The notes below the pieces were generated by a model, which was not told the origin of the DNA, did no database searches, and saw nothing but the letters and a program-made list of their open reading frames with translations. Made by a program: the position numbers and the translations under genes. A stretch of 64,000 nucleotides of DNA from Tahibacter soli (lineage in GTDB: Bacteria; Pseudomonadota; Gammaproteobacteria; Xanthomonadales; Rhodanobacteraceae). Within the stretch, counting starts at the first letter, position 1; every line of letters begins with the position of its first letter. The DNA lies in NCBI RefSeq assembly GCF_025717065.2, contig NZ_JAOVZO020000023.1, positions 248,001-312,000 of the forward strand, written 5' to 3'. This document shows, one piece after another, positions 44,815-55,620 of this stretch.

Positions 44815-45285
44815 GTCGATTCGGGACACCCACGAAACAAACCGCGATTCGGGACACCCAAAAAACGTAGCCCGATTGGGGACACCCAAAAACCGGGAGA
44901 TCCGATTCCGGGACATACACGAACCCAAGGCAATTCGGGACACCCACGATTCGGGCGCGCCCCCGAATCGCGCAGCGACACTGTGATTCTGGACACCCAA
45001 GATTCGACCAGGTGGCCGGGCCGATTCTGGACACCCAAGATTCGACCCGGCCGATTCTGGACACCCGATCGATTCTGGACACCCAAGATTTCGATGCGGC
45101 CGTTCAAGGACACCTGCGGCCGATTCTGGATACCCACGATTCCGGCCGATTCTGGACACCCAAGATTCGGCTGATTCAGGCCGATTCTGGACACCCAAGA
45201 TTCGCGGCCGATCGATTCTGGACACCCAAGATTTCGATTCGGCCGTTCAAAGACACCTGCAATTCAAGGACACCCGCGAGTCGGG
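44815..45285. repeat. Interspersed repeat array, about 16 units with GATTCTGGACACCCA core
   Basis: The consensus GATTCTGGACACCCAAGATTCG and its variants (GATTCGGGACACCCACGAA, GATTGGGGACACCCAAAAA, GTTCAAGGACACCTGC) recur about every 20-35 bp. Thirteen copies of GGACACC and three one-base variants can be counted. The left part carries GGGACACCCAMRA versions, the right part CTGGACACCCAAGATT versions. It occupies the convergent gap between the plus-strand gene ending at 44762 and the RiPP locus stop at 45354. There are no conserved direct repeats with unique spacers of even length, so it is not a CRISPR array. The shared GGACACCCAA core links it to the array at 31771-31960. Confidence 0.9.
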
Positions 45286-45353: not shown

Positions 45354-46250
45354 CTATTCGACGACGCCTGCCTCGATCCGCACCCGTTCGTCCGGCCGGC
45401 TGTCGCCATCGGCCGGCAGCAGGCACAGGCGCGCGTTGCCGCCTTCGAACCACGGCCGCAGCGTCACGCCGCTGCGGTCGGCGCGCGCCAGCGCGGCGAG
45501 CTGCGGCGGCTTGCGCGTGGTCATGACCGCCGCGACGCCGCGCTCGAACAGCGCGCGCGGATGCAGCGCGACGCTCTGGCCCTGCACGATGACGGTCTGG
45601 CCGGGCCCGGTCGCCGCGATCAGCGCGTCGAGCGTGTCGTTGCACAGCGCCGAGCCGGTGATCGCCAGCGTGTCGCAGCGGTCGAACACGGCCCGCCAGT
45701 CGCCGCCGTCGGACAGCCGCACGGCGACGTCCGGCCGCGCCATCCGCATCGCCGCGGTCACGCTCTCCATTTCCCTGCGCCGTTCCGGCAAGGTCAGATC
45801 GAGCACGCACAGCGAGCGCAGCGCGGGCACGCCGAGCATCCGCCACATCAGCCCGCCGAATCCGACCACCGCCGCGTTTCGCGTACCGACAAGACAGTAC
45901 GCCGGCAGGTCGGGTTGGACGTGCAGGCCGTACGAGGCCGGTGCGGCGAGGGCCGGTTCCGACAGCGCGGCGAGCAGCGCCGTGCGCAGACAGGCGGTGT
46001 CCGGCTCGCCCGGCACCGTGCCGAACAGCGCGTCGCGCAGGAGCGGATCGCGCGACGTCCGCGACAGCCACGACGCCTCGCGCCGTTCGAGGCCGTCCAC
46101 GGCCACGGCATAGTTCAGCGCCCAGCCCGCCGCACCGGTATCGAGAACGACGCCCGCGTACCCGTGCGTCAGAACGATGTCGGCGACGCGCCGGCCGCGC
46201 GAGAGCCCGGCGCCGTCGAGGTACCGCAGCGTATCGGCGGCGATGCTCAT
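45354..46250 (-). CDS. DUF364-like Rossmann protein in RiPP locus
   Basis: 298 residues from the ATG at 46250, which overlaps the upstream stop (ATGA). The N-terminal third (GLSRGRRVADIVLTHGYAGVVLDTGAAGWALNYAVAV) and the C-terminal Rossmann-like part (SLCVLDLTLPERRREMESVTAAMRM, CDTLAITGSALCNDTLDALIAA, IVQGQSVALHPRALFERGVAAVMTTRK) match the layout of DUF4213/DUF364 proteins, proposed metal-chelation-related enzymes. The LAITGSALCNDTLD stretch is the best match. Last gene of a tightly overlapped operon with radical-SAM RiPP maturases; a role in cofactor or peptide modification is inferred from this. Confidence 0.65.
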   Translation of the reverse strand: MSIAADTLRYLDGAGLSRGRRVADIVLTHGYAGVVLDTGAAGWALNYAVAVDGLERREASWLSRTSRDPLLRDALFGTVPGEPDTACLRTALLAALSEPALAAPASYGLHVQPDLPAYCLVGTRNAAVVGFGGLMWRMLGVPALRSLCVLDLTLPERRREMESVTAAMRMARPDVAVRLSDGGDWRAVFDRCDTLAITGSALCNDTLDALIAATGPGQTVIVQGQSVALHPRALFERGVAAVMTTRKPPQLAALARADRSGVTLRPWFEGGNARLCLLPADGDSRPDERVRIEAGVVE

Positions 46251-47680
46251 CCGGCGCGGTACGCGGCGACGGAAATATCCGCCGCGGCCGGTACGGTCTC
46301 CGCGACGAGTCCGGCGGCGGCGAGCAGCTGCGCCAGCGATCCGTGGCGCCGCAGCGCACGGTCGCTGGCGTAGGCGATCACGCAGCGCGCGGCGGCGAAT
46401 ATCGAATCCAGCAGCGCAGCGCGTTCGGTTGCAGCAAGATCCACGACGTCTTCGGGTCGCAGCAACGCGACGTCGACCGGCACCGGGCAGCCCGCCAGAC
46501 CGTCGCGCAGCCGCGTCGGACCGCCGACGGCGAGGGCGTCCGCGCGATGCGGCAGGCGCCGTCGAGCGCGGACGACCTGATCCTGCCGCGTATCGAGGCC
46601 GAAGACCTGCAGACGCCGCGTTTCGGCTTCGGCCAGCTGCAGCAGGTAGCCGTCGCCGCACGCGAGATCGAGCAGCGAACCGCCCGCGGCGCGCAGCCGC
46701 CGCGACTGCTCCCACACGACTTCGGCCTGGCGCGTGCGCCACGCGTGGACGCTGTCGAAGCCGTAGTCCGCCGCGGCGGGATTGTCGAACTCGCCGTCGA
46801 GCGAGGTTTCGACGACGGCGGTTTCGACGTGTGCGACGCCGCCGCCGGACGCACGCGGCGTTGCTGAAGACGACGCGTAGTCGAGCCTCGGCTGCCGCGC
46901 GCCCGCGTCGGCGAGCAGGCGCAGCACGGGCGTGTGCAGTTCGGCGATGCCGTTGCGGCGCGAATAGCGCATCGGCCAGGCCAGCACCTCGGTCAGCCAG
47001 CCGATCGCGGCGTCGTGTCCGGCGGCGCGCCCGCGCGCCAGCCGCGCGGCGCCGAGCGCACGCGACGCGTCGCAGCGGTCGCTGCAGGCGATATGCGGCA
47101 CGGCCGCAAGGCCCAGCGACTGCAGCAGGCCGCCGGCTTCCCACGCACGGGAACCTGCGGATGTCCGCGCCGAACCGGCCGCGTGGATCGCGAGCGGCAG
47201 CCGTTCGCCGTCAGCCAGCGCCGTCGTCAGCGCGGTGCCGCAGCAGTCCGGATAGCCGGCCAGTCGCAGCGACGCGGCGAGGTCGCCGGACGCCAGCGCG
47301 TCGACGAGCGCGTCGATGCCGTCGCGCCGGGTCAACGCCAGACGGTAGTGCGGCACCGGCGTGTCGTCCGTCGCCGGCCCGGTTTCGACGCGTGCGCCAA
47401 GCGGTATCGCCGCGAGGTCCAGCGATCGCAGCCGTGCGGTCAGCGGCGCGATCTGCGCCGGCGCGCATTCGAGCGCGGTGGCCGCGATACGGCCCGCGGC
47501 GACGTCGTCGAGTTCGATGTCGAGCAGCGCGGCGCGGATCGCCGCCAGGCGCGGCGCCCAGAGCCTGCGCTGCGATTCGCCGGCCCAGGCCTGGCGCGGC
47601 GCGGAGAAATCCAGGCGCTGCGCGTCCGCCTCGACGGGCAGCGGCAGGCGCAGCAGGCGCGGCGCGTCGTCGAGGCTCAT
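46247..47680 (-). CDS. Two-domain protein: Cys-containing DUF483-like domain + SAM methyltransferase
   Basis: 477 residues; starts within the ATGA overlap of the radical-SAM gene upstream. The N-terminal half has RLAGYPDCCGTALT and, further on, AVPHIACSDRCDASRALGAARLARG, a pattern of paired cysteines (CC, then C-x3-C) that resembles DUF483 proteins; this resemblance is tentative. The C-terminal 200 residues are a class I methyltransferase: SLLDLACGDGYLLQLAEAET (motif I), FGLDTRQDQVVRARRRL (motif II) and DVALLRPEDVVDL. It may methylate the peptide product or the cofactor. Arrangement with radical-SAM enzymes suggests a tailoring role. Confidence 0.65.
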   Translation of the reverse strand: MSLDDAPRLLRLPLPVEADAQRLDFSAPRQAWAGESQRRLWAPRLAAIRAALLDIELDDVAAGRIAATALECAPAQIAPLTARLRSLDLAAIPLGARVETGPATDDTPVPHYRLALTRRDGIDALVDALASGDLAASLRLAGYPDCCGTALTTALADGERLPLAIHAAGSARTSAGSRAWEAGGLLQSLGLAAVPHIACSDRCDASRALGAARLARGRAAGHDAAIGWLTEVLAWPMRYSRRNGIAELHTPVLRLLADAGARQPRLDYASSSATPRASGGGVAHVETAVVETSLDGEFDNPAAADYGFDSVHAWRTRQAEVVWEQSRRLRAAGGSLLDLACGDGYLLQLAEAETRRLQVFGLDTRQDQVVRARRRLPHRADALAVGGPTRLRDGLAGCPVPVDVALLRPEDVVDLAATERAALLDSIFAAARCVIAYASDRALRRHGSLAQLLAAAGLVAETVPAAADISVAAYRAG

Positions 47681-48863
47681 GCAGCATGCCCGGCCGTTGC
47701 CGGCGCGACACCGACGCCGAGCCGCGCAGTCAGCGACTGCAGGCTTTCGTCCAGGCCTTCGCGCCACAGGGCGACGAGTTCGGCCTCGCATTCGGCGCGC
47801 CGCGGCGATTGCGACAGCGGCGCTTCGCCTTCGGCCAGCAACGTTCGCTCGATGTCCTCGAACAGGCCGAACCACGTCGCGCAGTGTTCGCTGCGCAGAC
47901 GCCAGTCGCCCTCGAGCGCCGTGCCCGGGCAATTGCCCTTGCACATCAGAAAGAAGCGGCATCCCCGACAACCGCCGTCGGCGTGCGGCGTTTCGTGCAA
48001 CGACAGCTGGCGCTCGTAGCCGCGCCGCTCCGTGGCGAGCCAGGCGATGCCGTCCTTGTGGGTGCGGCCGCAGTTGCTGCGGTCGCCGCCGCCCTCGACG
48101 CCGCGCACGCCGCGCGTCGCGTACGGGTCGCACGCCTGCCAGATGCACGAGCTGACCGCGTCGCGCGCCAGCAGCATCCGGCGCATCTCGTCGAACAGGT
48201 CGAAGCGCAGGCCCGGCAGGGTCGGTTCGAGCGCGCGCAGGCGCCGCAGCACGCGCAGGTTCTGCGCATCGGAAAGCCGCAGGCCGCGCGACGCGTTGTG
48301 CTGGTCGACTTCCAGGAGGTGCAGGCGCATGCGGCGCACGCCGAGCGCGTGCAGGTGCGCGATCCAGTCGCACAGCACGCCCAACCGCGCGCCGCGGGTG
48401 TTGCCGCCGTGCAGCGTGACGATGGCGCTCGGCGCCAGGCCCTCGCGGCACAGCCGCGCCAGCGCCGCCTCGGCGCGCGCACTGGCGCGCAGGGTGCGGC
48501 CGGCCGAACCGGCCCAGCGCATGTCGTTGAGCGAGCCGGGTCCGTCGAGCGAAATGCCGACCCGCACGTTGTAGCGGCGGAACAGGGCGATGTGGTGCGG
48601 CTCGATCAGCGCGCCGTTCGTCTGTATCGCGTTGACGCCGTGGCGCTCGAGGCCGTACGCGAACAGGCGCTCGAGGTCGGCGTCGCGTACGAGCAGCGCC
48701 TCGCCGCCGAACAGCACGAACGGCTCGCCGAGTTCGTCGAGCGTGGCCAGCATCTGCGGCAGCGAATAACGCGGCGGCGCGGTGGCCGCCGCGCGCGTGC
48801 CTTCCTGATAGCAGTAGCGGCACTGGATGTTGCAGCGATCGCCGAGCGGGCGCAGTTCGACGC

Positions 48864-48867
<4 letters not shown>
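47677..48867 (-). CDS. Radical SAM/SPASM peptide maturase
   Basis: 396 residues. The N-terminal CNIQCRYC is the CxxxCxxC [4Fe-4S] motif, preceded by MSVELRPLGDR. EPFVLFGGEALL is the GGE motif, and NVRVGISLDGPGSLND a typical core strand. The C-terminal SPASM-like region has SCIWQACDPYATRG, NCGRTHKDG and GGCRGCRFFLMCKGNCPG, giving at least seven Cys for auxiliary clusters. Such enzymes make thioether, C-C or C-O crosslinks in RiPPs (for example sactipeptide and ranthipeptide maturases). It overlaps both neighbours by 4 nt (ATGA), so stoichiometric expression with the B12 radical-SAM protein is likely. Confidence 0.9.
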
Positions 48868-50780
<1,913 letters not shown>

Positions 50781-50787
50781 GCGAGGC

Positions 50788-51849
50788 TCAACCGGCCAGG
50801 GCCGGCGATACGGCCGGCGCTTGGGCGTCCGCGGCGCCCGCCGCGGGATCGTCGCCCGGCGCGCGCCACAGGCCGAGCGCGCGCAGCACCTCGACATGCG
50901 CGTCGAGGTGGGCGCGCTTGTCCTGCACCGCCGACCGGGCCGCATCGAGCAGACCGGGCGTCGTGAACAGCCGCTCGCAGGCCGAGCAGATTCCGTCGAA
51001 ATCGCCTTCCGCGAGCGGCTGCGCGCTATCGGCGGTGGATTGCACGAGCACCTGCACCGGACCTTCGAGCGCGATCCAGGTCCACAGCGGATCGGCGTAC
51101 GCCGCCGCGAGGGCCGTATCGACGCGGTCGCCCCGCGCGAGGTCGCCGATGGCCATGGCGTCGTTGTGCGGCAGCACGCCGCAGCACGGCAGCAGCTTGC
51201 CGGTATGCGTGACCTGGATGTTCTGCAGCACCGAGTGGCAGGCGCCGCGATAGACGCGCGCGTCGCGGCGCCGCGCCGCTTCGTTCGCGGCGGCATCGTC
51301 GCCGTCGGCCGCGCGGCCGGTGCCGTTGACGACGACTTCGTAGACCTTCTCGCGCGGATCGTCCGGCGCGACGCGCAGCAACTCGCGCAGATAGGCCGCG
51401 TCGATGCGCGGCTGCGCGTCCACGGTGACGGCGACGTACAGGCGCAGCGAAAACGCGCGCGCCGCGGCCACCGCGTTCTCGACGTTGCGCAGCGGCACGA
51501 ACGCCGCGTGCGCATCGTCGTAGCTGACCACGAGCTCGGCGAGGCCGGCCTCGACGAGCGGTTTCAGGATCGCCTGCGCGCGTGCCGGAGAGCGCGCCCA
51601 GAACGCGCTCGTCGTCGCCGCGCCGTGCATGCCGTGGCCGCCGGCATGCAGCAGCGCCTTGCGCATGATGTCGGGGACGAGAAACGGATCGCCGCCGACG
51701 AAATGCACCTGGTTCAGGCCGTCCAGGCGCGCCGCGTCGTCGATCGCGCGGCAGGCGTCGGCGACGTCGAGGCAGCCGTGCCGGCCCATGTCGGAGCGAT
51801 AGCAGCAGTGCGCGCAGCGCAGCGGACATTGCAGGGTCAGGTTCAGCAC
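50788..51849 (-). CDS. Radical SAM/SPASM peptide maturase, start uncertain
   Basis: The frame from stop 50788 reads back through SACERLFTTPGLLD, GKLLPCCGVLPHNDAM and HFVGGDPFLVPDIMRK to LNLTLQCPLRCAHCCYRSDMG, a clear CxxxCxxC motif, and on to GNCVAPRSL. The nearest start is a GTG at 51849, eight residues before the motif, with no ribosome site. The only other start in frame is the ATG at 52074, which overlaps the peptide gene by 44 nt. A third possibility is an indel joining ATG 51914 (MHNESRPAKRAPR, one frame off) to this frame near the CCCCGGG at about 51880. The body is a complete SPASM-type maturase with Cys pairs in its C-terminal region. The GTG is used here for the conservative coordinates. 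Confidence 0.78.
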   Translation of the reverse strand: MLNLTLQCPLRCAHCCYRSDMGRHGCLDVADACRAIDDAARLDGLNQVHFVGGDPFLVPDIMRKALLHAGGHGMHGAATTSAFWARSPARAQAILKPLVEAGLAELVVSYDDAHAAFVPLRNVENAVAAARAFSLRLYVAVTVDAQPRIDAAYLRELLRVAPDDPREKVYEVVVNGTGRAADGDDAAANEAARRRDARVYRGACHSVLQNIQVTHTGKLLPCCGVLPHNDAMAIGDLARGDRVDTALAAAYADPLWTWIALEGPVQVLVQSTADSAQPLAEGDFDGICSACERLFTTPGLLDAARSAVQDKRAHLDAHVEVLRALGLWRAPGDDPAAGAADAQAPAVSPALAG

Positions 51850-51970
51850 CAGGCTGCGCGGCGCGACGCAGTTGCCCGGGGAGCGCGTTTCGCGGGTCGG
51901 CTCTCGTTGTGCATGTTCCGGCTCGCGGGAAGACGGAAGGTGGGGGCGGGCGGCGGCGCGCCGCCGTCCT

Positions 51971-51994
51971 GCGCGATCCGTCCGTGGATCGCGC
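51971..51994 (-). terminator. Hairpin between peptide gene and radical-SAM gene (attenuator-like)
   Basis: GCGCGATCC-GTCCGT-GGATCGCGC, a perfect 9-bp stem, 36 nt after the peptide stop (52031). Placed like the stem after the lanthipeptide precursor, it may favour high precursor and low enzyme expression. Confidence 0.5.
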
Positions 51995-52030
51995 CGGCGT
52001 CCGCCGGATGGCGACGCCGATTCGGGCGGC

Positions 52031-52267
52031 TCAGACGTCGATGTGCACGACCGAGGCCGGTGCCGGCGCGGCATCGCCGCGCGTCGACACGCGTTGCTGG
52101 ATGGCCTTGGCCGTGGCGTCGTCGACGCTGACGCCGAAGCGCGCGAGGAAGGTCTTGGCGTCGGCCTCGAGCGAGCCGAGGATGTCTTTTTCGCTCTTCA
52201 GCGCGACGGCGGCGGCGTGCAGCTTGCTGCTGTCGAGCGCGACGTTCGTGACAGTTGCGATACCCAT
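52031..52267 (-). CDS. RiPP precursor-like peptide, 78 aa, Cys-free
   Basis: From the ATG at 52267 with GGAG 7 nt upstream. A long N-terminal helix (MGIATVTNVALDSSKLHAAA, then EKDILGSLEADAKTFLARFGVSVDDATAKAIQQ) is followed by a short tail, STRGDAAPAPASVVHIDV. A leader-like helix followed by a small Ala/Pro-rich tail ending in an aromatic/His/Asp cluster is what is expected of a radical-SAM-modified precursor. It sits directly upstream of the three radical-SAM genes and behind the AT-rich island. There is no Cys, so lanthionine or sactionine chemistry on it is excluded. That it is the substrate of the radical-SAM enzymes is inferred from gene order. Confidence 0.72.
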   Translation of the reverse strand: MGIATVTNVALDSSKLHAAAVALKSEKDILGSLEADAKTFLARFGVSVDDATAKAIQQRVSTRGDAAPAPASVVHIDV

Positions 52268-52324
52268 GACGTGACTCCCAGGTAGGTTTGCGGGACGAGG
52301 CTCGGGCGCCTCGTTGCAATTACT

Positions 52325-52415
52325 GCACACGTATACTTAAAAGTAAACAAAAATATGCTTTTCAATATTTAAAATATAAAATTGATTAATATCAATAAGA
52401 TATTGAAGGATTCTG
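52325..52415 (-). promoter_or_regulatory. AT-rich island upstream of the peptide/radical-SAM operon
   Basis: About 80 bp of nearly pure A/T inside a GC-rich genome. It contains TTCAATAT (52361-52368) and its inverted copy ATATTGAA (52400-52407), and ATTGAT/ATCAAT arms at 52381-52386 and 52391-52396. Possible -35 (TTGAAA) and -10 (TATACT-like) elements on the minus strand are present but spacing is not ideal. Likely promoter and operator of the downstream operon. Confidence 0.55.
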
Positions 52416-52525
52416 GAATCGGCCGAAGCCGGCATTGCCGCTTGCGCGGTTTGCCGTCGGTTGTCCCGGACGACAGCTGGCCGGCGGGCCGGAAAGCGAG
52501 GGCTGGTTCGGTCGGCGCGACGGCG

Positions 52526-55357
52526 TCAAGCCGCCTGCGCGCGGCGCTCCTGGAGCAGCGGCGAGGGCAGCCGGCAGTCCGGATGCATGCGGTTGAAGCC
52601 GTGCACGGCGCCGGCGAGGCCGGTCATGAGGCCCGGCGTGAACGCCGCATGCGTCGTCGAGACGATCACGCCGCGATGTTCCTCGACCGCCGAGATCACG
52701 CGCGCGGTCGACGCGTCGCGATCGACGGCGCACCCTTCGGGGTCGAGCGCGGCGGCGCGCACGAGGAATTCCCACAGCGAGAAATCGCCGTGGCACAGCG
52801 TGTGGCTCGCGCCCCAGGTGTCGCGCGACGCCGCCGCCGCGCGGCGCAGCATCCGCAGATGGCCCGGATCGCGCGTTCGCGCGTACAGGTCGCCGGCCGC
52901 GAGGCCGATGCCGACGCTGCCGTTGCACCAGGTGTGGAACGTTTCGTCGCGCGTCCACTGGCGCCGGTCGAGCCAGTTGCCGAGCGCGGCGTCGTAGAGC
53001 GAATCCTGGAACGCGAACGCGGCATCCGACAGCGCGCGCCAGCGCGCGCGATCGGCGGCGTCGCCGGCATCGGACAGCGCCAGCCGCGCGAGCGCCCAGG
53101 CGGTGCCGGCGGCGCCGTGCGCGAATCCGCCGACCGGTTCGTCGCTGACCGTCGACGGCCAGCGCGCGCCCTGCGCGTCGACGATCGCGGTGGCTTCGAG
53201 ATAGCGCCCGGCGCGCGCCGCGAGCGCGAGCCAGCGCGCGTCGCCGGTCGCGCCGGCGAGTTCGACGAGCGGCACGATCACGCCGGCGGAACCGTCGAGG
53301 ATGTCGTAGCGCCGGTCGTCGTCGAAGCCCGTGCGTTCGAGCGCCTCGGCGCGTGCGGCGGCCTGCGCGACGAGTCCGGGCCGGTCGAGCAGGTCGTGCA
53401 GCGCGAGCCACGTCCAGATCTGTCCGCCGTGGCCGTTGAAGCCGCCGATCACGCGCGGCGGTTCGCCCGCGTCGAGCGCCTTGAGAATCCGGAGCGCGCC
53501 GTCGATCGCCGCGTCGAGTCCGGCGACGGCGTCGGCGCGGCCGCGTGCGGCTTCGGCGCGATAGCCGGCCAGCGCGACGACGACGCCGCCGAGGCCGAAA
53601 TAGATGTCGTGCTGCACCGGCTGCACGAGCCAGCCGGCGTGCGTCGTTTCCGGCGTGATCCACGTGACCGAACCGTCGCCGCCGCGCACGGCGAGGCGCA
53701 GCAGCTGCGCGACGGCGTCGGCCGCGAGCTTGCGGCGGCGCGCCTCGAGGCGCTCGGCATGCGGGTGGCGCGCGTAGTACAGCCGCAGGCGGTTGCGCTC
53801 GTCGGGCACGTCGAGGTTGCGATTGAGTTCGGTCGCGACGAGCGCGCTGCGGATCGTGAGTTCTTCGAGGTCGATGCGCATCGCGCGCCAGTCGGCGAAC
53901 GTCGCGGCGATGCGCCCCTGCGTCAGCGGCGCGACGAAGATCGGAATGTCGCCGTGGCGCAGATCGTCGATCTCCGCCGCGATCTCGCTCGCCGACGACG
54001 GCGCCACCGGCACGACCGCGGCGTTGCGCACGAACAGGTCGCGCGCGCGTTCGATGGCCGCGGCCTCGTCGTGCAGCGACGCCGGGTGCCACAGCATGCG
54101 GCCGATTTCGGCGTAGGCCTGCGTCGGCCGGCGGATATCGCGGATGCGGCAGCCCGCGAACGCGGCGAGCCGCTGTTCGAGTTCGCCGTTCGCGTCGAGG
54201 TCCTTCAGGCGCCGCGACGCGTCGATGAAGCCGTCGCTGATGCGATCCCAGTGCGCCGCGACGTTCGGTTGCGCGCTCGGATGGTTCTGCGCCGCGTTGC
54301 GGTCGACGTCGATGATCGCCACGCGCGCCCGCGTCGTGCCGGGATCGGCGATCACCGGCATGTGCACCTGCGGCTGCTGGCCCGGCAGCGCGCCGGCCGC
54401 GGATACGTCGACGCCGTGGAAACCGAGCGCCGGCGCGCGATACGGCACGATGCCGGTACGCAGCACCGAGCTTCTGATCAGCGCCTGCGCGGCGTCGTAC
54501 GCGTCGCCGTAGGTCGAAACCGGGCTCGGCGGGATCACCGAGAACAGGCTTTCGACGTCGATCACGACCGGCACCGGACCGGCCGCGATCAGGTTTTCGT
54601 GATGGATGTCGGTGCCGCCGAGCAGGCGCAGCACGGCGAGCCAGTGGCCGAGGCCGCGATAGAACCGGTCGAATTCGGCCTCGCCGTCGCAGTAGCGGTG
54701 CGCGACGAACGCGGCCCAGCCGTAGGCGCCGCGGTCGATCACGGCCGGCGCGCGAATGCGTTCGGCGTCGCCGGCGAACACGTGCGCGAGAAACGCGTCG
54801 AGCGCCGCGTCGATGCGCAGCGAACGCGGCTTGTACATCACGTCGCCGCCTTCGAACGTCACGCGCGCGACGGTCTGGCCGCCGTCGTGCAGGTCGCCCT
54901 GGCCGAGACCGAGCGCCGTCAGACGGCCGGCGGGGCGGTGCAGCAGCGCCGACAGCGCATCGCGATCGGCGACGAGGCGATCGAGCAATGCGTCGAGCGA
55001 TGCGCGTTGCCGGTCGAGCGCGCAGTGCAGGCGTTCGCGCAGCGGCGGATAGCGGCGGTCCAGGTGCGCGGCGAATTCCGGGGCCGCGGCGCGTGCGACG
55101 AACTGTGCGAACTGCGCCGCGTCGTCTCCGTCCGTCAGCTCGCCGGCACGTTTGGCGGCATGCAGTTCGAGCAGCAGCAAGCGGCTGATCTTGAGCCGCG
55201 CGTTGGCGTTCAGCGCCTCGTCGCCGGCGGCGCGGACGATCTGCGCTTCGGCGGCGTCGAGCGCGCAGGCGCCGAGGCGGGCGGCGAACGCGGCGCGCGC
55301 CTGCAGGGTGAAACCTTCGACGATGGGCGCGAAAGCGTCGTGCGTCGGTTCGGTCAT
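52526..55357 (-). CDS. lanM: Class II lanthipeptide synthetase (LanM)
   Basis: 943 residues. N-terminal DUF4135-type dehydratase/kinase part with YKPRSLRID at 175-183, GGTDIHHENLIA at 247-258 and VVIDVES at 264-270, all standard for Ser/Thr phosphorylation and elimination. C-terminal LanC-like cyclase from about 540, with GFNGHGGQIWTWLALHDL, DGSAGVIVPLVELA, GFAHGAAGTAWALARLAL, then TWCNGSVGIG (Cys811) and LCHGDFS (Cys855-His856), the three zinc ligands. All expected catalytic residues seem present, so it should dehydrate Ser/Thr and form (methyl)lanthionine rings. It lies 71 nt downstream of a Cys-rich precursor gene, separated by a strong hairpin. No LanT follows it. Confidence 0.95.
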   Translation of the reverse strand: MTEPTHDAFAPIVEGFTLQARAAFAARLGACALDAAEAQIVRAAGDEALNANARLKISRLLLLELHAAKRAGELTDGDDAAQFAQFVARAAAPEFAAHLDRRYPPLRERLHCALDRQRASLDALLDRLVADRDALSALLHRPAGRLTALGLGQGDLHDGGQTVARVTFEGGDVMYKPRSLRIDAALDAFLAHVFAGDAERIRAPAVIDRGAYGWAAFVAHRYCDGEAEFDRFYRGLGHWLAVLRLLGGTDIHHENLIAAGPVPVVIDVESLFSVIPPSPVSTYGDAYDAAQALIRSSVLRTGIVPYRAPALGFHGVDVSAAGALPGQQPQVHMPVIADPGTTRARVAIIDVDRNAAQNHPSAQPNVAAHWDRISDGFIDASRRLKDLDANGELEQRLAAFAGCRIRDIRRPTQAYAEIGRMLWHPASLHDEAAAIERARDLFVRNAAVVPVAPSSASEIAAEIDDLRHGDIPIFVAPLTQGRIAATFADWRAMRIDLEELTIRSALVATELNRNLDVPDERNRLRLYYARHPHAERLEARRRKLAADAVAQLLRLAVRGGDGSVTWITPETTHAGWLVQPVQHDIYFGLGGVVVALAGYRAEAARGRADAVAGLDAAIDGALRILKALDAGEPPRVIGGFNGHGGQIWTWLALHDLLDRPGLVAQAAARAEALERTGFDDDRRYDILDGSAGVIVPLVELAGATGDARWLALAARAGRYLEATAIVDAQGARWPSTVSDEPVGGFAHGAAGTAWALARLALSDAGDAADRARWRALSDAAFAFQDSLYDAALGNWLDRRQWTRDETFHTWCNGSVGIGLAAGDLYARTRDPGHLRMLRRAAAASRDTWGASHTLCHGDFSLWEFLVRAAALDPEGCAVDRDASTARVISAVEEHRGVIVSTTHAAFTPGLMTGLAGAVHGFNRMHPDCRLPSPLLQERRAQAA

Positions 55358-55388
55358 CGGCGCTCTGGATTCCGGCGAAGGGATTCAA

Positions 55389-55419
55389 CAGCGCGCAACA
55401 CAGGGTTCGTTGCGCGCTG
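55389..55419 (-). terminator. Perfect 11-bp hairpin between lanthipeptide precursor and lanM
   Basis: CAGCGCGCAAC (55389-55399), 9-nt loop, GTTGCGCGCTG (55409-55419), 10 nt after the precursor stop. Downstream on the minus strand comes TTGAATCC, with no strong U-tract, so it looks like a partial terminator or RNA-stabilising stem that raises precursor over LanM levels. Confidence 0.65.
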
Positions 55420-55428
55420 CGGTATCGC

Positions 55429-55620
55429 TCAGCAGCAGGCGCAGCTGCTCGGGCGGCACGAGCCGGTCGTCTGGCCGAGCGTCGTCACCATGTTGGCGGC
55501 GGCGCTGGCGCGGGTCAGGGCTTCTTCGGTGGCCACGGCGCCCTCGATGAACAGCGGGCCCGCCGGGCTGTCTTCCGAACCGCTGAGCCAGCCGGATACG
55601 ACTTCGTCGGTGTGTTGCAT
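55429..55620 (-). CDS. lanA: Class II lanthipeptide precursor, 63 aa, Cys-rich C-terminus
   Basis: AGGAGAG lies 8 nt before the ATG at 55620. Acidic leader (MQHTDEVVSGWLSGSEDSPA, then GPLFIEGAVATEEALTRASAAAN), then a core-like tail of about 19 residues, MVTTLGQTTGSCRPSSCACC, with four Thr, three Ser and four Cys, one of them C-terminal. Lanthionine formation by the adjacent LanM would give up to four rings. The tail has no clear double-Gly cleavage site; the AAA before NMVTT is a candidate. The gene is small but placed right before lanM with a strong ribosome site, which supports it. Not recognised as a known lantibiotic. Confidence 0.88.
   Translation of the reverse strand: MQHTDEVVSGWLSGSEDSPAGPLFIEGAVATEEALTRASAAANMVTTLGQTTGSCRPSSCACC

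What the first reader, a model, noticed from the sequence alone, without database searches (positions are those of the whole stretch)
45354..55620. Combined lanthipeptide and three-radical-SAM RiPP locus
On one strand, within about 10 kb: a Cys-rich lanA-like precursor with full-length LanM, and a Cys-free precursor-like peptide with two SPASM radical-SAM enzymes, a B12 radical-SAM enzyme, a Cys-domain/methyltransferase fusion and a DUF364-like protein. The last five genes overlap by 4-nt ATGA junctions or lie within a few bases. Lanthionine chemistry plus B12-radical C-methylation plus SPASM crosslinking side by side is not a layout I recognise. It could be two fused clusters or one hybrid pathway in which both peptides or one peptide receive several modifications.
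Basis: partly seen in the sequence, partly recalled or inferred. Interest (0 to 1): 0.88.

Follow-up and report, generated by a model that had tools for sequence, protein, structure and literature searches.

The report
Unreported radical-enzyme peptide cassette beside lanthipeptide
A Tahibacter bacterium carries, next to an ordinary lanthipeptide gene pair, a separate gene cassette that seems to turn the short protein tail 'Val-His-Ile-Asp' into a heavily altered small peptide, and the same kind of cassette with the same kind of tail occurs in distantly related bacteria without the lanthipeptide.

Summary
The genes are there as described, but they are two neighbouring clusters, not one hybrid pathway. 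(1) A DUF6229 precursor plus LanM: a class II lanthipeptide pair of a published kind; a same-genus relative has it without the radical-SAM genes. (2) A cassette: Cys-free precursor, YydG-like radical-SAM, B12 radical-SAM C-methyltransferase, SPASM enzyme, Cys-domain/methyltransferase fusion, DUF364. All but DUF364 recur in 17 other genomes: two same-genus, 13 alphaproteobacterial, two of another family of the order with another gene order. All 19 precursors counted end in [IV]H[IVLF]D plus 1-3 residues; only His and Asp are invariant there. In 13 of 13 alphaproteobacterial cassettes an aKG-HExxH peptide beta-hydroxylase takes DUF364's place. I infer a His-X-Asp three-residue cyclophane, epimerised and C-methylated branched residues, and a swappable last step. 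No product has been seen; my literature searches listed no description; structure prediction could not be run. In the window the YydG-like gene's start is one frame off the rest, so this copy may be damaged or misassembled.

The parts
55429..55620 (-). LanA: class II lanthipeptide precursor, PF19740/DUF6229, ends ...TTGSCRPSSCACC; separate neighbour of the cassette
   Evidence: Pfam DUF6229 54.2 bits, cut-off 25; orthologue at 53% identity beside LanM in G004/L106
52526..55357 (-). LanM, class II lanthipeptide synthetase
   Evidence: TIGR03897, DUF4135, LANC_like above cut-offs
52297..52349 (-). Conserved upstream region of the cassette precursor: TGTTTACTT box and GAGGC(G)...(C)GCCTC inverted repeat
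   Evidence: alignment of three Tahibacter-group upstream regions; DNA similarity to L013 starts at window 52349
52031..52267 (-). Cassette precursor peptide, 78 aa, Cys-free
   Evidence: orthologues 78-79% identical in alignment A3; 19 related precursors
52037..52048 (-). V-H-I-D core motif at residues 74-77 of the precursor
   Evidence: [IV]H[IVLF]D in 19 of 19 precursors counted, 1-3 residues from the C-terminus
50788..51897 (-). YydG-like radical-SAM enzyme, probable peptide epimerase; shown from the part that aligns with relatives; start codon uncertain
   Evidence: PDB YydG 8ai6 profile E 3.6e-24 over profile positions 23-321 of 357; start one frame off
48864..50780 (-). B12-binding radical-SAM RiPP C-methyltransferase
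   Evidence: TIGR03975 566.6 bits
47677..48867 (-). Radical-SAM/SPASM enzyme, probable cyclophane synthase
   Evidence: sulfatase maturase, DynA, AmcB, YhhB, XyeB are the best five families, all below cut-off; PDB: anaerobic sulfatase maturase E 7.6e-12, then ChlB radical-SAM domain 9gm3 E 9.2e-7
46247..47680 (-). GYPxCC...CxxxC Cys-domain fused to a class I SAM methyltransferase
   Evidence: Methyltransf_12 in 15 of 15 members at E up to 1 (best 6.7e-6), DUF483 weakly in 5 of 15 (best 0.034); five Cys columns invariant in 17 sequences
45354..46250 (-). DUF364 protein, sixth gene of the Tahibacter form of the cassette
   Evidence: PF04016 52.8 bits; present in G003 and G007 at 73% and 62% identity

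Best explanation
Two independent RiPP clusters lie side by side. The LanA/LanM pair makes a class II lanthipeptide. The other is a radical-enzyme cassette acting on the precursor's C-terminal tail (...ASVVHIDV). Shown: the same enzymes recur together in several lineages, their precursors end in [IV]H[IVLF]D plus one to three residues, and the sixth gene is swapped between lineages. Inferred: the leader (D..FL..G motif) recruits the enzymes; the SPASM enzyme joins His to the beta-carbon of Asp two residues on (three-residue cyclophane); the YydG-like enzyme epimerises, and the B12 enzyme C-methylates, Val/Ile residues next to His; the Cys-domain/methyltransferase fusion adds a methyl group, perhaps at the Asp or the C-terminal carboxyl; a last enzyme finishes the product, by beta-hydroxylation of the cyclophane's Asp or His in alphaproteobacteria and by an unknown DUF364 reaction in Tahibacter. 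Export and leader removal are probably provided from elsewhere; none of the six cassette genes of the window is a protease or transporter.
For: Separate inheritance of the two modules. DUF6229 precursors are published as class II lanthipeptide precursors in Rhodanobacteraceae and Lysobacter (passages of PMC9576775 and PMC11451712). All four enzymes in 15 of the 77 loci kept, all with B12 enzyme identity of 46% or more, and in two more genomes with a different gene order. Pairwise identities of the four enzymes correlate at 0.94-0.98 across six lineages (no unrelated gene was run as a control, so species descent alone could give part of this). 19 of 19 precursors counted have the motif; the only invariant columns are D, L, G in the leader and H, D in the core. 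SPASM profile matches ChlB, YhhB, AmcB, DynA, XyeB. Precedents: HaaB and YhhB join C2 of His to the beta-carbon of Ala or Arg at i+2, YxdB joins Tyr to Asp (PMC11002830 passages); the HExxH domain fused to ChlB hydroxylates Asp and His and depends on a preinstalled cyclophane (PMC12636437 introduction and one results section). HExxH hydroxylase homologue at the sixth place in 13 of 13 alphaproteobacterial cassettes (family assigned for 3 of 3 scanned). YydG profile match over nearly the whole fold with eight Cys columns invariant in 18 of 18.
Against: No chemistry was tested. SPASM and YydG-like proteins fall far below NCBIfam's equivalog cut-offs, so their reactions could differ. The SPASM matches are not specific to cyclophane enzymes: the window protein's best NCBIfam and PDB hits are anaerobic sulfatase maturases, and PapB, mycofactocin, AhbC and viperin models also match all 16 members. 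The site of each modification is a guess. The alphaproteobacterial precursors were picked by me from the ORFs by resemblance, with the tails in view, so that choice was not blind; the two of L111 and L112 were found by tblastn. The precursor of L043, dropped before the count because that contig has only the YydG/B12 pair, lacks the motif. Ten of the 19 come from closely related Bradyrhizobium, so independent lineages number about six. The window's own YydG-like gene has a misplaced start, and one Bradyrhizobium copy (L044) lacks the middle Cys of CxxxCxxC. Neither HExxH nor DUF364 matched in the 18 and 10 kb read of the two genomes of the other family, so the sixth gene is accessory. Absence of LanM from G003 is weak (87% complete), and the flanks of several loci are short.
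Confidence: 0.6

Rival explanations
1. One hybrid pathway: LanM and the radical-SAM enzymes act on the same peptide or jointly on both peptides.
For: Same strand and within 10 kb; LanM stop and precursor start only 258 nt apart.
Against: The modules occur apart in related genomes and no LanM match lies in any of the 15 cassette loci of the 77 kept. The precursor has no Cys; LanA has no HxD motif. The precursor has its own conserved upstream region.
Confidence: 0.04
2. The cassette makes a metallophore: the crosslinked, hydroxylated or DUF364-treated His/Asp tail chelates a metal.
For: Core keeps one His and one Asp invariant; DUF364 was proposed from structure and gene context to serve heavy-metal chelation (PMC2954201 passages); beta-hydroxylation of Asp/His adds a ligand (inference).
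Against: No receptor or metal importer is among the genes shared by all cassettes; DUF364's chelation role is itself only a proposal; only one His and one Asp per core.
Confidence: 0.2
3. The SPASM enzyme does not crosslink but does another radical reaction on the HxD tail, such as oxidation, decarboxylation or epimerisation of Asp, and the epimerase/B12 pair is the main tailoring step.
For: Best NCBIfam and PDB hits of the SPASM enzyme are anaerobic sulfatase maturases and all family scores are far below cut-offs. The YydG/B12 pair exists without it on the 6.2 kb contig L043, with a Val/Ala-rich NHLP-like precursor and a gene that looks by eye like a subtilisin.
Against: Cyclophane-enzyme models DynA, AmcB, YhhB, XyeB and GrrM/OscB match all 16 members, though not they alone, and the His-x-Asp spacing is that of three-residue cyclophanes.
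Confidence: 0.25
4. The window copy is a decaying cassette: the YydG-like gene is broken at its start, so the strain makes only a partly modified peptide or none.
For: Start codon matching relatives is out of frame with the rest; the other two Tahibacter-group copies are intact.
Against: The rest of the ORF and all other genes are open and conserved; the genome is a draft in 23 contigs, so a sequencing or assembly error is possible.
Confidence: 0.3

Closest known systems
Class II lanthipeptides with DUF6229 precursors (rhodanocins; Lysobacter and Rhodanobacteraceae)
   Same: LanM plus DUF6229 precursor; reported from Rhodanobacteraceae and Lysobacter
   Different: The core's Ser/Thr/Cys pattern was not compared with theirs; the genome's only C39-peptidase match is on another contig
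Triceptides (XyeB/XncB, YhhB, HaaB, YxdB, ChlB)
   Same: Precursor tail without Cys, an aromatic-x-residue motif and an anSME/cyclophane-type SPASM enzyme; HExxH hydroxylase as in ChlBH
   Different: Motif is His-x-Asp at the very C-terminus; joined by an epimerase-like enzyme, a B12 C-methyltransferase and a Cys-domain methyltransferase; hydroxylase is a separate gene or replaced by DUF364
Epipeptides (YydF/YydG, EpeX/EpeE of Bacillus)
   Same: YydG-type radical-SAM enzyme directly after the precursor gene; Val/Ile available in the core (YydG's target residues recalled)
   Different: Below the YydG equivalog cut-off; precursor has no NCBIfam match; three to four further tailoring enzymes. Other yyd genes were not searched for.
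TIGR03975 RiPP clusters (B12 radical-SAM C-methyltransferases)
   Same: Full-length family member above the cut-off
   Different: 62 of the 77 B12-enzyme loci kept lack one or more of the YydG-like, SPASM and fusion partners in the DNA held

Membership tests
Class II lanthipeptide cluster (the LanA/LanM part) | LanM with dehydratase (DUF4135) and LanC cyclase domains | tested here: met
   TIGR03897 503.5 bits, DUF4135 307.3, LANC_like 109.7, all above cut-offs
Class II lanthipeptide cluster (the LanA/LanM part) | Adjacent precursor with Ser/Thr and Cys in the core | tested here: met
   DUF6229, ends TTLGQTTGSCRPSSCACC
Class II lanthipeptide cluster (the LanA/LanM part) | LanT-type exporter with C39 peptidase in the cluster | tested here: not met
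   Only C39 match in the genome is on another contig, C20; such genes can act from elsewhere, so I file it only as a LanA/LanM pair
Lanthipeptide/radical-SAM hybrid pathway | The two modules co-occur in relatives | tested here: not met
   Only the window among 8 genomes of the genus has both; 0 of 15 cassette loci hold a LanM match
Triceptide (three-residue cyclophane) family | SPASM radical-SAM enzyme of a named 3-cyclophane family | tested here: inconclusive
   All 16 members match DynA, AmcB, YhhB, XyeB models at E 1e-5 or better, but also several non-cyclophane models; the window protein is far below the equivalog cut-offs
Triceptide (three-residue cyclophane) family | Conserved aromatic-x-x motif in the core | tested here: met
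   His-x-Asp in 19 of 19 precursors counted
Triceptide (three-residue cyclophane) family | C(sp2)-Cbeta crosslink between residues i and i+2 | not testable with these tools
   needs mass spectrometry and NMR
Epipeptide (YydG) family | YydG equivalog enzyme | tested here: not met
   TIGR04078 68.4 bits against 300; homology to solved YydG over profile positions 23-321, E 3.6e-24, so 'YydG-like' only
Epipeptide (YydG) family | Catalytic hydrogen-donor Cys (its existence in YydG recalled) | tested here: inconclusive
   C225 (T. harae numbering) is invariant in 18 of 18 but sits two columns from the YydG Cys in the alignment
TIGR03975 B12 radical-SAM C-methyltransferase | Score above family cut-off | tested here: met
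   566.6 bits against 281.85
aKG-HExxH peptide beta-hydroxylase (alphaproteobacterial cassettes only) | TIGR04267 above cut-off | tested here: met
   66-90 bits against 40 in 3 of 3 scanned; homologues in 13 of 13 cassettes; no match in the Tahibacter-group loci L012, L014, L029, L030 or in L043
DUF364 (PF04016) | Score above gathering cut-off | tested here: met
   52.8 bits against 23, best stretch residues 187-254

The most novel reading that the evidence does not exclude
A so far undescribed RiPP class, spread over alpha- and gammaproteobacteria, whose C-terminal [IV]H[IVLF]D tail is crosslinked His-to-Asp, epimerised and C-methylated by three radical enzymes and then finished by an interchangeable sixth enzyme, either an aKG-HExxH hydroxylase or DUF364. 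This would make DUF364 a peptide-tailoring enzyme, its first defined reaction as far as I know, possibly giving a metal-binding product.
Probability: 0.3. Interest if true: 0.8.

Novelty: new variant of a known kind. Interest (0 to 1): 0.62.

Why it matters
If right, it is a compact RiPP class with three radical-SAM chemistries aimed at a four-residue motif at the C-terminus, with clean natural variants: with a hydroxylase, with DUF364, and with neither. That makes three open questions directly testable: whether a SPASM enzyme can crosslink His to Asp, what DUF364 does, and what the GYPxCC Cys-domain joined to a methyltransferase does.

Tried and rejected
Rejected: a joint lanthipeptide/radical-SAM pathway (see rivals). 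Rejected: sactipeptide or ranthipeptide chemistry for the cassette, because 17 of 19 precursors hold no Cys and the other two hold none in the last 16 residues.

Led nowhere or weak: the first genome-contig scan with the fusion protein alone found no relative. Among 61 relatives searched with the fusion protein, 4 matched: window, G003, G007 and one weak domain match, G011. A search of the plasmid collection with the SPASM enzyme gave only distant radical-SAM proteins, below 60% identity in 12 of 12 records. A class-level search around G108 (48 genomes) found nothing, but it was evidently not the alphaproteobacterial class that I had wanted, so it says nothing. In the phylum search with P0006, 8 of 398 genomes matched, but all except the window's were weak methyltransferase-domain matches with E above 1e-4. 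Searches at order level (4 of 398) and class level (2 of 369) were samples and scored only 3-4 candidates per genome, so misses are likely. The scan required the motif GCWWGQK or YLNL[DH]FA[ED], so it would miss relatives such as L111 and L112 that have GCWWGAK; only the best 80 of 256 relatives were kept, as 77 loci. The G820 match (L114) is a Cys-domain piece at the very edge of its contig: no other cassette gene matched in the 8 kb read, but what lay before the edge cannot be seen. No PDB chain matched the DUF364 profile at E 0.1 or the B12 profile at E 0.01.

Not run: structure prediction; all eleven tries were answered 'machine busy', so no fold search was possible.

Errors of mine: one search translated the wrong frame and was repeated. 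One search used a wrong slice for the window's YydG-like gene, so its YydG figures are void and were redone. One search gave L041 a YydG start that is not a start codon. The L039 precursor slice begins three bases before its ATG.
Full report
WHAT IS THERE. The finding's coordinates and gene list hold. On the minus strand, from high to low coordinates: LanA 55429-55620, LanM 52526-55357, a Cys-free 78-aa precursor 52031-52267, a YydG-like radical-SAM gene ending at 50788, a B12 radical-SAM gene 48864-50780, a SPASM radical-SAM gene 47677-48867, a Cys-domain/methyltransferase fusion 46247-47680 and a DUF364 gene 45354-46250. Family matches: TIGR03897 LanM, TIGR03975 B12 C-methyltransferase, PF04016 DUF364 and PF19740 DUF6229 are all above their curated cut-offs. 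The host genome has 6.65 Mb in 23 contigs and belongs to the genus of Tahibacter harae: genome G007, listed as 'same genus', has the 209,495-base contig that names as T. harae.

TWO CLUSTERS, NOT ONE. Among the 8 genomes of the genus held, the window's included, a full-length match to the cassette's B12 enzyme occurs in the window, G003 and G007 (a second, 26% partial match in the window's genome is left aside). LanM occurs in the window, in G004 at 61% identity, and as a distant 31% homologue in G002. Only the window has both. G004 carries a DUF6229 precursor (53% identical, ending TTASCRPSSCACC) directly before its LanM and no significant match to a cassette gene in the 19.9 kb read. Absence of LanM from G003 counts for less, since that genome is 87% complete; G007 is 99% complete. 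The LanA/LanM pair is of a published kind: DUF6229 peptides are class II lanthipeptide precursors, called rhodanocins in Rhodanobacteraceae, and 21 of 27 unique class II precursors in a set of Lysobacter genomes belong to DUF6229 (passages of PMC9576775 and PMC11451712). The cassette precursor has its own upstream region, conserved in three Tahibacter-group genomes: a TGTTTACTT box and a GAGGC(G)/(C)GCCTC inverted repeat.

THE CASSETTE RECURS. In G007 and G003 all six genes are syntenic (in G003 split over two contigs). A scan of GTDB genomes with the B12 enzyme profile gave 256 relatives, of which 77 loci were kept. In 15 of these 77 the YydG-like, SPASM and fusion genes lie beside it: the records of G003 and T. 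harae, ten Bradyrhizobium, two Sphingomonas and one Caulobacterales MAG. They are the 15 loci with B12 identity of 46% or more; the rest are at 41% or less. A profile search of 398 genomes of the order found two further genomes, in another family, with the order SPASM-fusion-precursor-YydG-B12. Counting the window, 18 genomes have the five-gene core. Pairwise identities of the four enzymes correlate at 0.99 over 17 genomes and 0.94-0.98 over six lineages, as expected if they are inherited together; I ran no unrelated gene as a control, so common descent of the species may account for part of it.

THE CORE MOTIF. Nineteen precursors from these 18 genomes (18 distinct sequences, 14 distinct nine-residue tails) were aligned. 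All 19 have [IV]H[IVLF]D, one to three residues from the C-terminus. The only invariant columns are D, L and G in the leader and H and D in the core (the 17-member alignment is). How they were chosen: in the alphaproteobacteria I took, from all ATG ORFs of 40 aa or more in the 900 bases before the YydG-like gene, the one (two in L032) that looked like a precursor, with the tails in view; those of L013, L014, L111 and L112 came by tblastn with the window's precursor. The precursor of L043, whose contig has only the YydG/B12 pair, was left out and lacks the motif. Eight of the 19 were scanned against NCBIfam and five against Pfam; none reached a cut-off. Ten of the 19 are from close Bradyrhizobium relatives, so the independent lineages are about six. 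The window genome has one such precursor.

THE SIXTH GENE IS SWAPPED. In 13 of 13 alphaproteobacterial cassettes the gene after the fusion is homologous to an aKG-HExxH peptide beta-hydroxylase; three of three scanned exceed the TIGR04267 cut-off. In the three Tahibacter-group genomes it is DUF364. In the two genomes of the other family neither query matched in the 18 and 10 kb read. Bradyrhizobium adds a second B12 radical-SAM gene and, convergent with it, a gene that looks by eye like an MFS exporter, in 10 of 10 loci.

HOW IT MOST LIKELY WORKS. Shown: conservation of gene set, motif and order variants. Inferred: chemistry. The SPASM enzyme's relatives with solved structures are led by anaerobic sulfatase maturase, followed by the ChlB radical-SAM domain. 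Its 16 members all match the DynA, AmcB, YhhB and XyeB models, but also sulfatase-maturase, PapB, mycofactocin, AhbC and viperin models, and the window protein is far below every equivalog cut-off listed. Known triceptide enzymes join residue i to residue i+2, including C2(His) to the beta-carbon of Ala or Arg and Tyr to Asp (review PMC11002830, passages). A HExxH enzyme fused to the ChlB radical-SAM domain hydroxylates Asp and His, and this depends on a preinstalled cyclophane (PMC12636437, introduction and one results section). An invariant His-x-Asp next to a cyclophane-like enzyme and, in alphaproteobacteria, a HExxH hydroxylase fits that logic closely. The YydG-like enzyme matches solved YydG over profile positions 23-321 of 357, and eight Cys columns are invariant in 18 of 18, with a ninth in 17, so epimerisation of Val/Ile is the natural guess. 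The B12 enzyme is a family member, so C-methylation of a branched residue is likely. On the 6.2 kb contig L043 (Palleronia) a YydG-like/B12 pair alone accompanies a Val/Ala-rich NHLP-like precursor and a gene that looks by eye like a subtilisin, and in the second gene order SPASM-fusion and YydG-B12 stand on opposite sides of the precursor. Both suggest two functional pairs. The fusion protein's N-terminal part has an invariant CC and CxxxC pattern and only a weak DUF483 resemblance in 5 of 15 members; its role is unknown.

LIMITS. No product, no expression data, no structure model. Equivalog cut-offs for YydG and the cyclophane families are not met. In the window the YydG-like gene's expected start codon is one frame off the rest; intact copies exist in the two relatives. 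In my ten paper searches (open-access library only) no listed title or start of abstract describes such a cassette; I saw listings, plus passages or sections of five papers (PMC9576775, PMC11451712, PMC12636437, PMC2954201, PMC11002830). Most subscription papers are not held, so novelty in print is not proven.

VERDICT. The lanthipeptide half is ordinary. The radical-SAM half is a conserved, apparently undescribed RiPP cassette built from known enzyme families: a new variant of a known kind, with a sharp and testable motif.

Noticed in passing
window 44818-45241: Ten dispersed copies of a 28-nt GATTCTGGACACCCAAGATTC-like repeat just downstream of the DUF364 gene.
   Followed up: partly
window 52297-52312: Inverted repeat in the 5' region of the cassette precursor whose stem is kept while the loop varies in three Tahibacter-group genomes; a possible regulatory hairpin, not folded.
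   Followed up: partly
window, start of the YydG-like gene, about 51900: The ATG matching the relatives' start of the YydG-like gene is out of frame with the rest of the gene; relatives are intact.
   Followed up: partly
G000 contig C20, about 707,209-714,132: A second LanC-like gene and the genome's only C39-peptidase match lie within 7 kb of each other, probably another lanthipeptide cluster.
   Followed up: no
L044 8931-10004: YydG-like protein of Bradyrhizobium barranii has Tyr in place of the middle Cys of CxxxCxxC.
   Followed up: no
L043 928-5730: Palleronia contig: YydG-like plus B12 radical-SAM pair with a Val/Ala-rich NHLP-like precursor and a subtilisin-like gene (by eye), a simpler relative of the cassette.
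   Followed up: partly
L114 162-3148: Cys-domain piece at a contig edge, near genes that look by eye like an HPr-kinase-like protein and a nucleotidyltransferase, a pairing I recall from lasso peptide clusters.
   Followed up: no
L034 15475-17148: Second B12 radical-SAM gene directly after the HExxH gene in all ten Bradyrhizobium loci; best NCBIfam match PhpK-like, below cut-off.
   Followed up: partly
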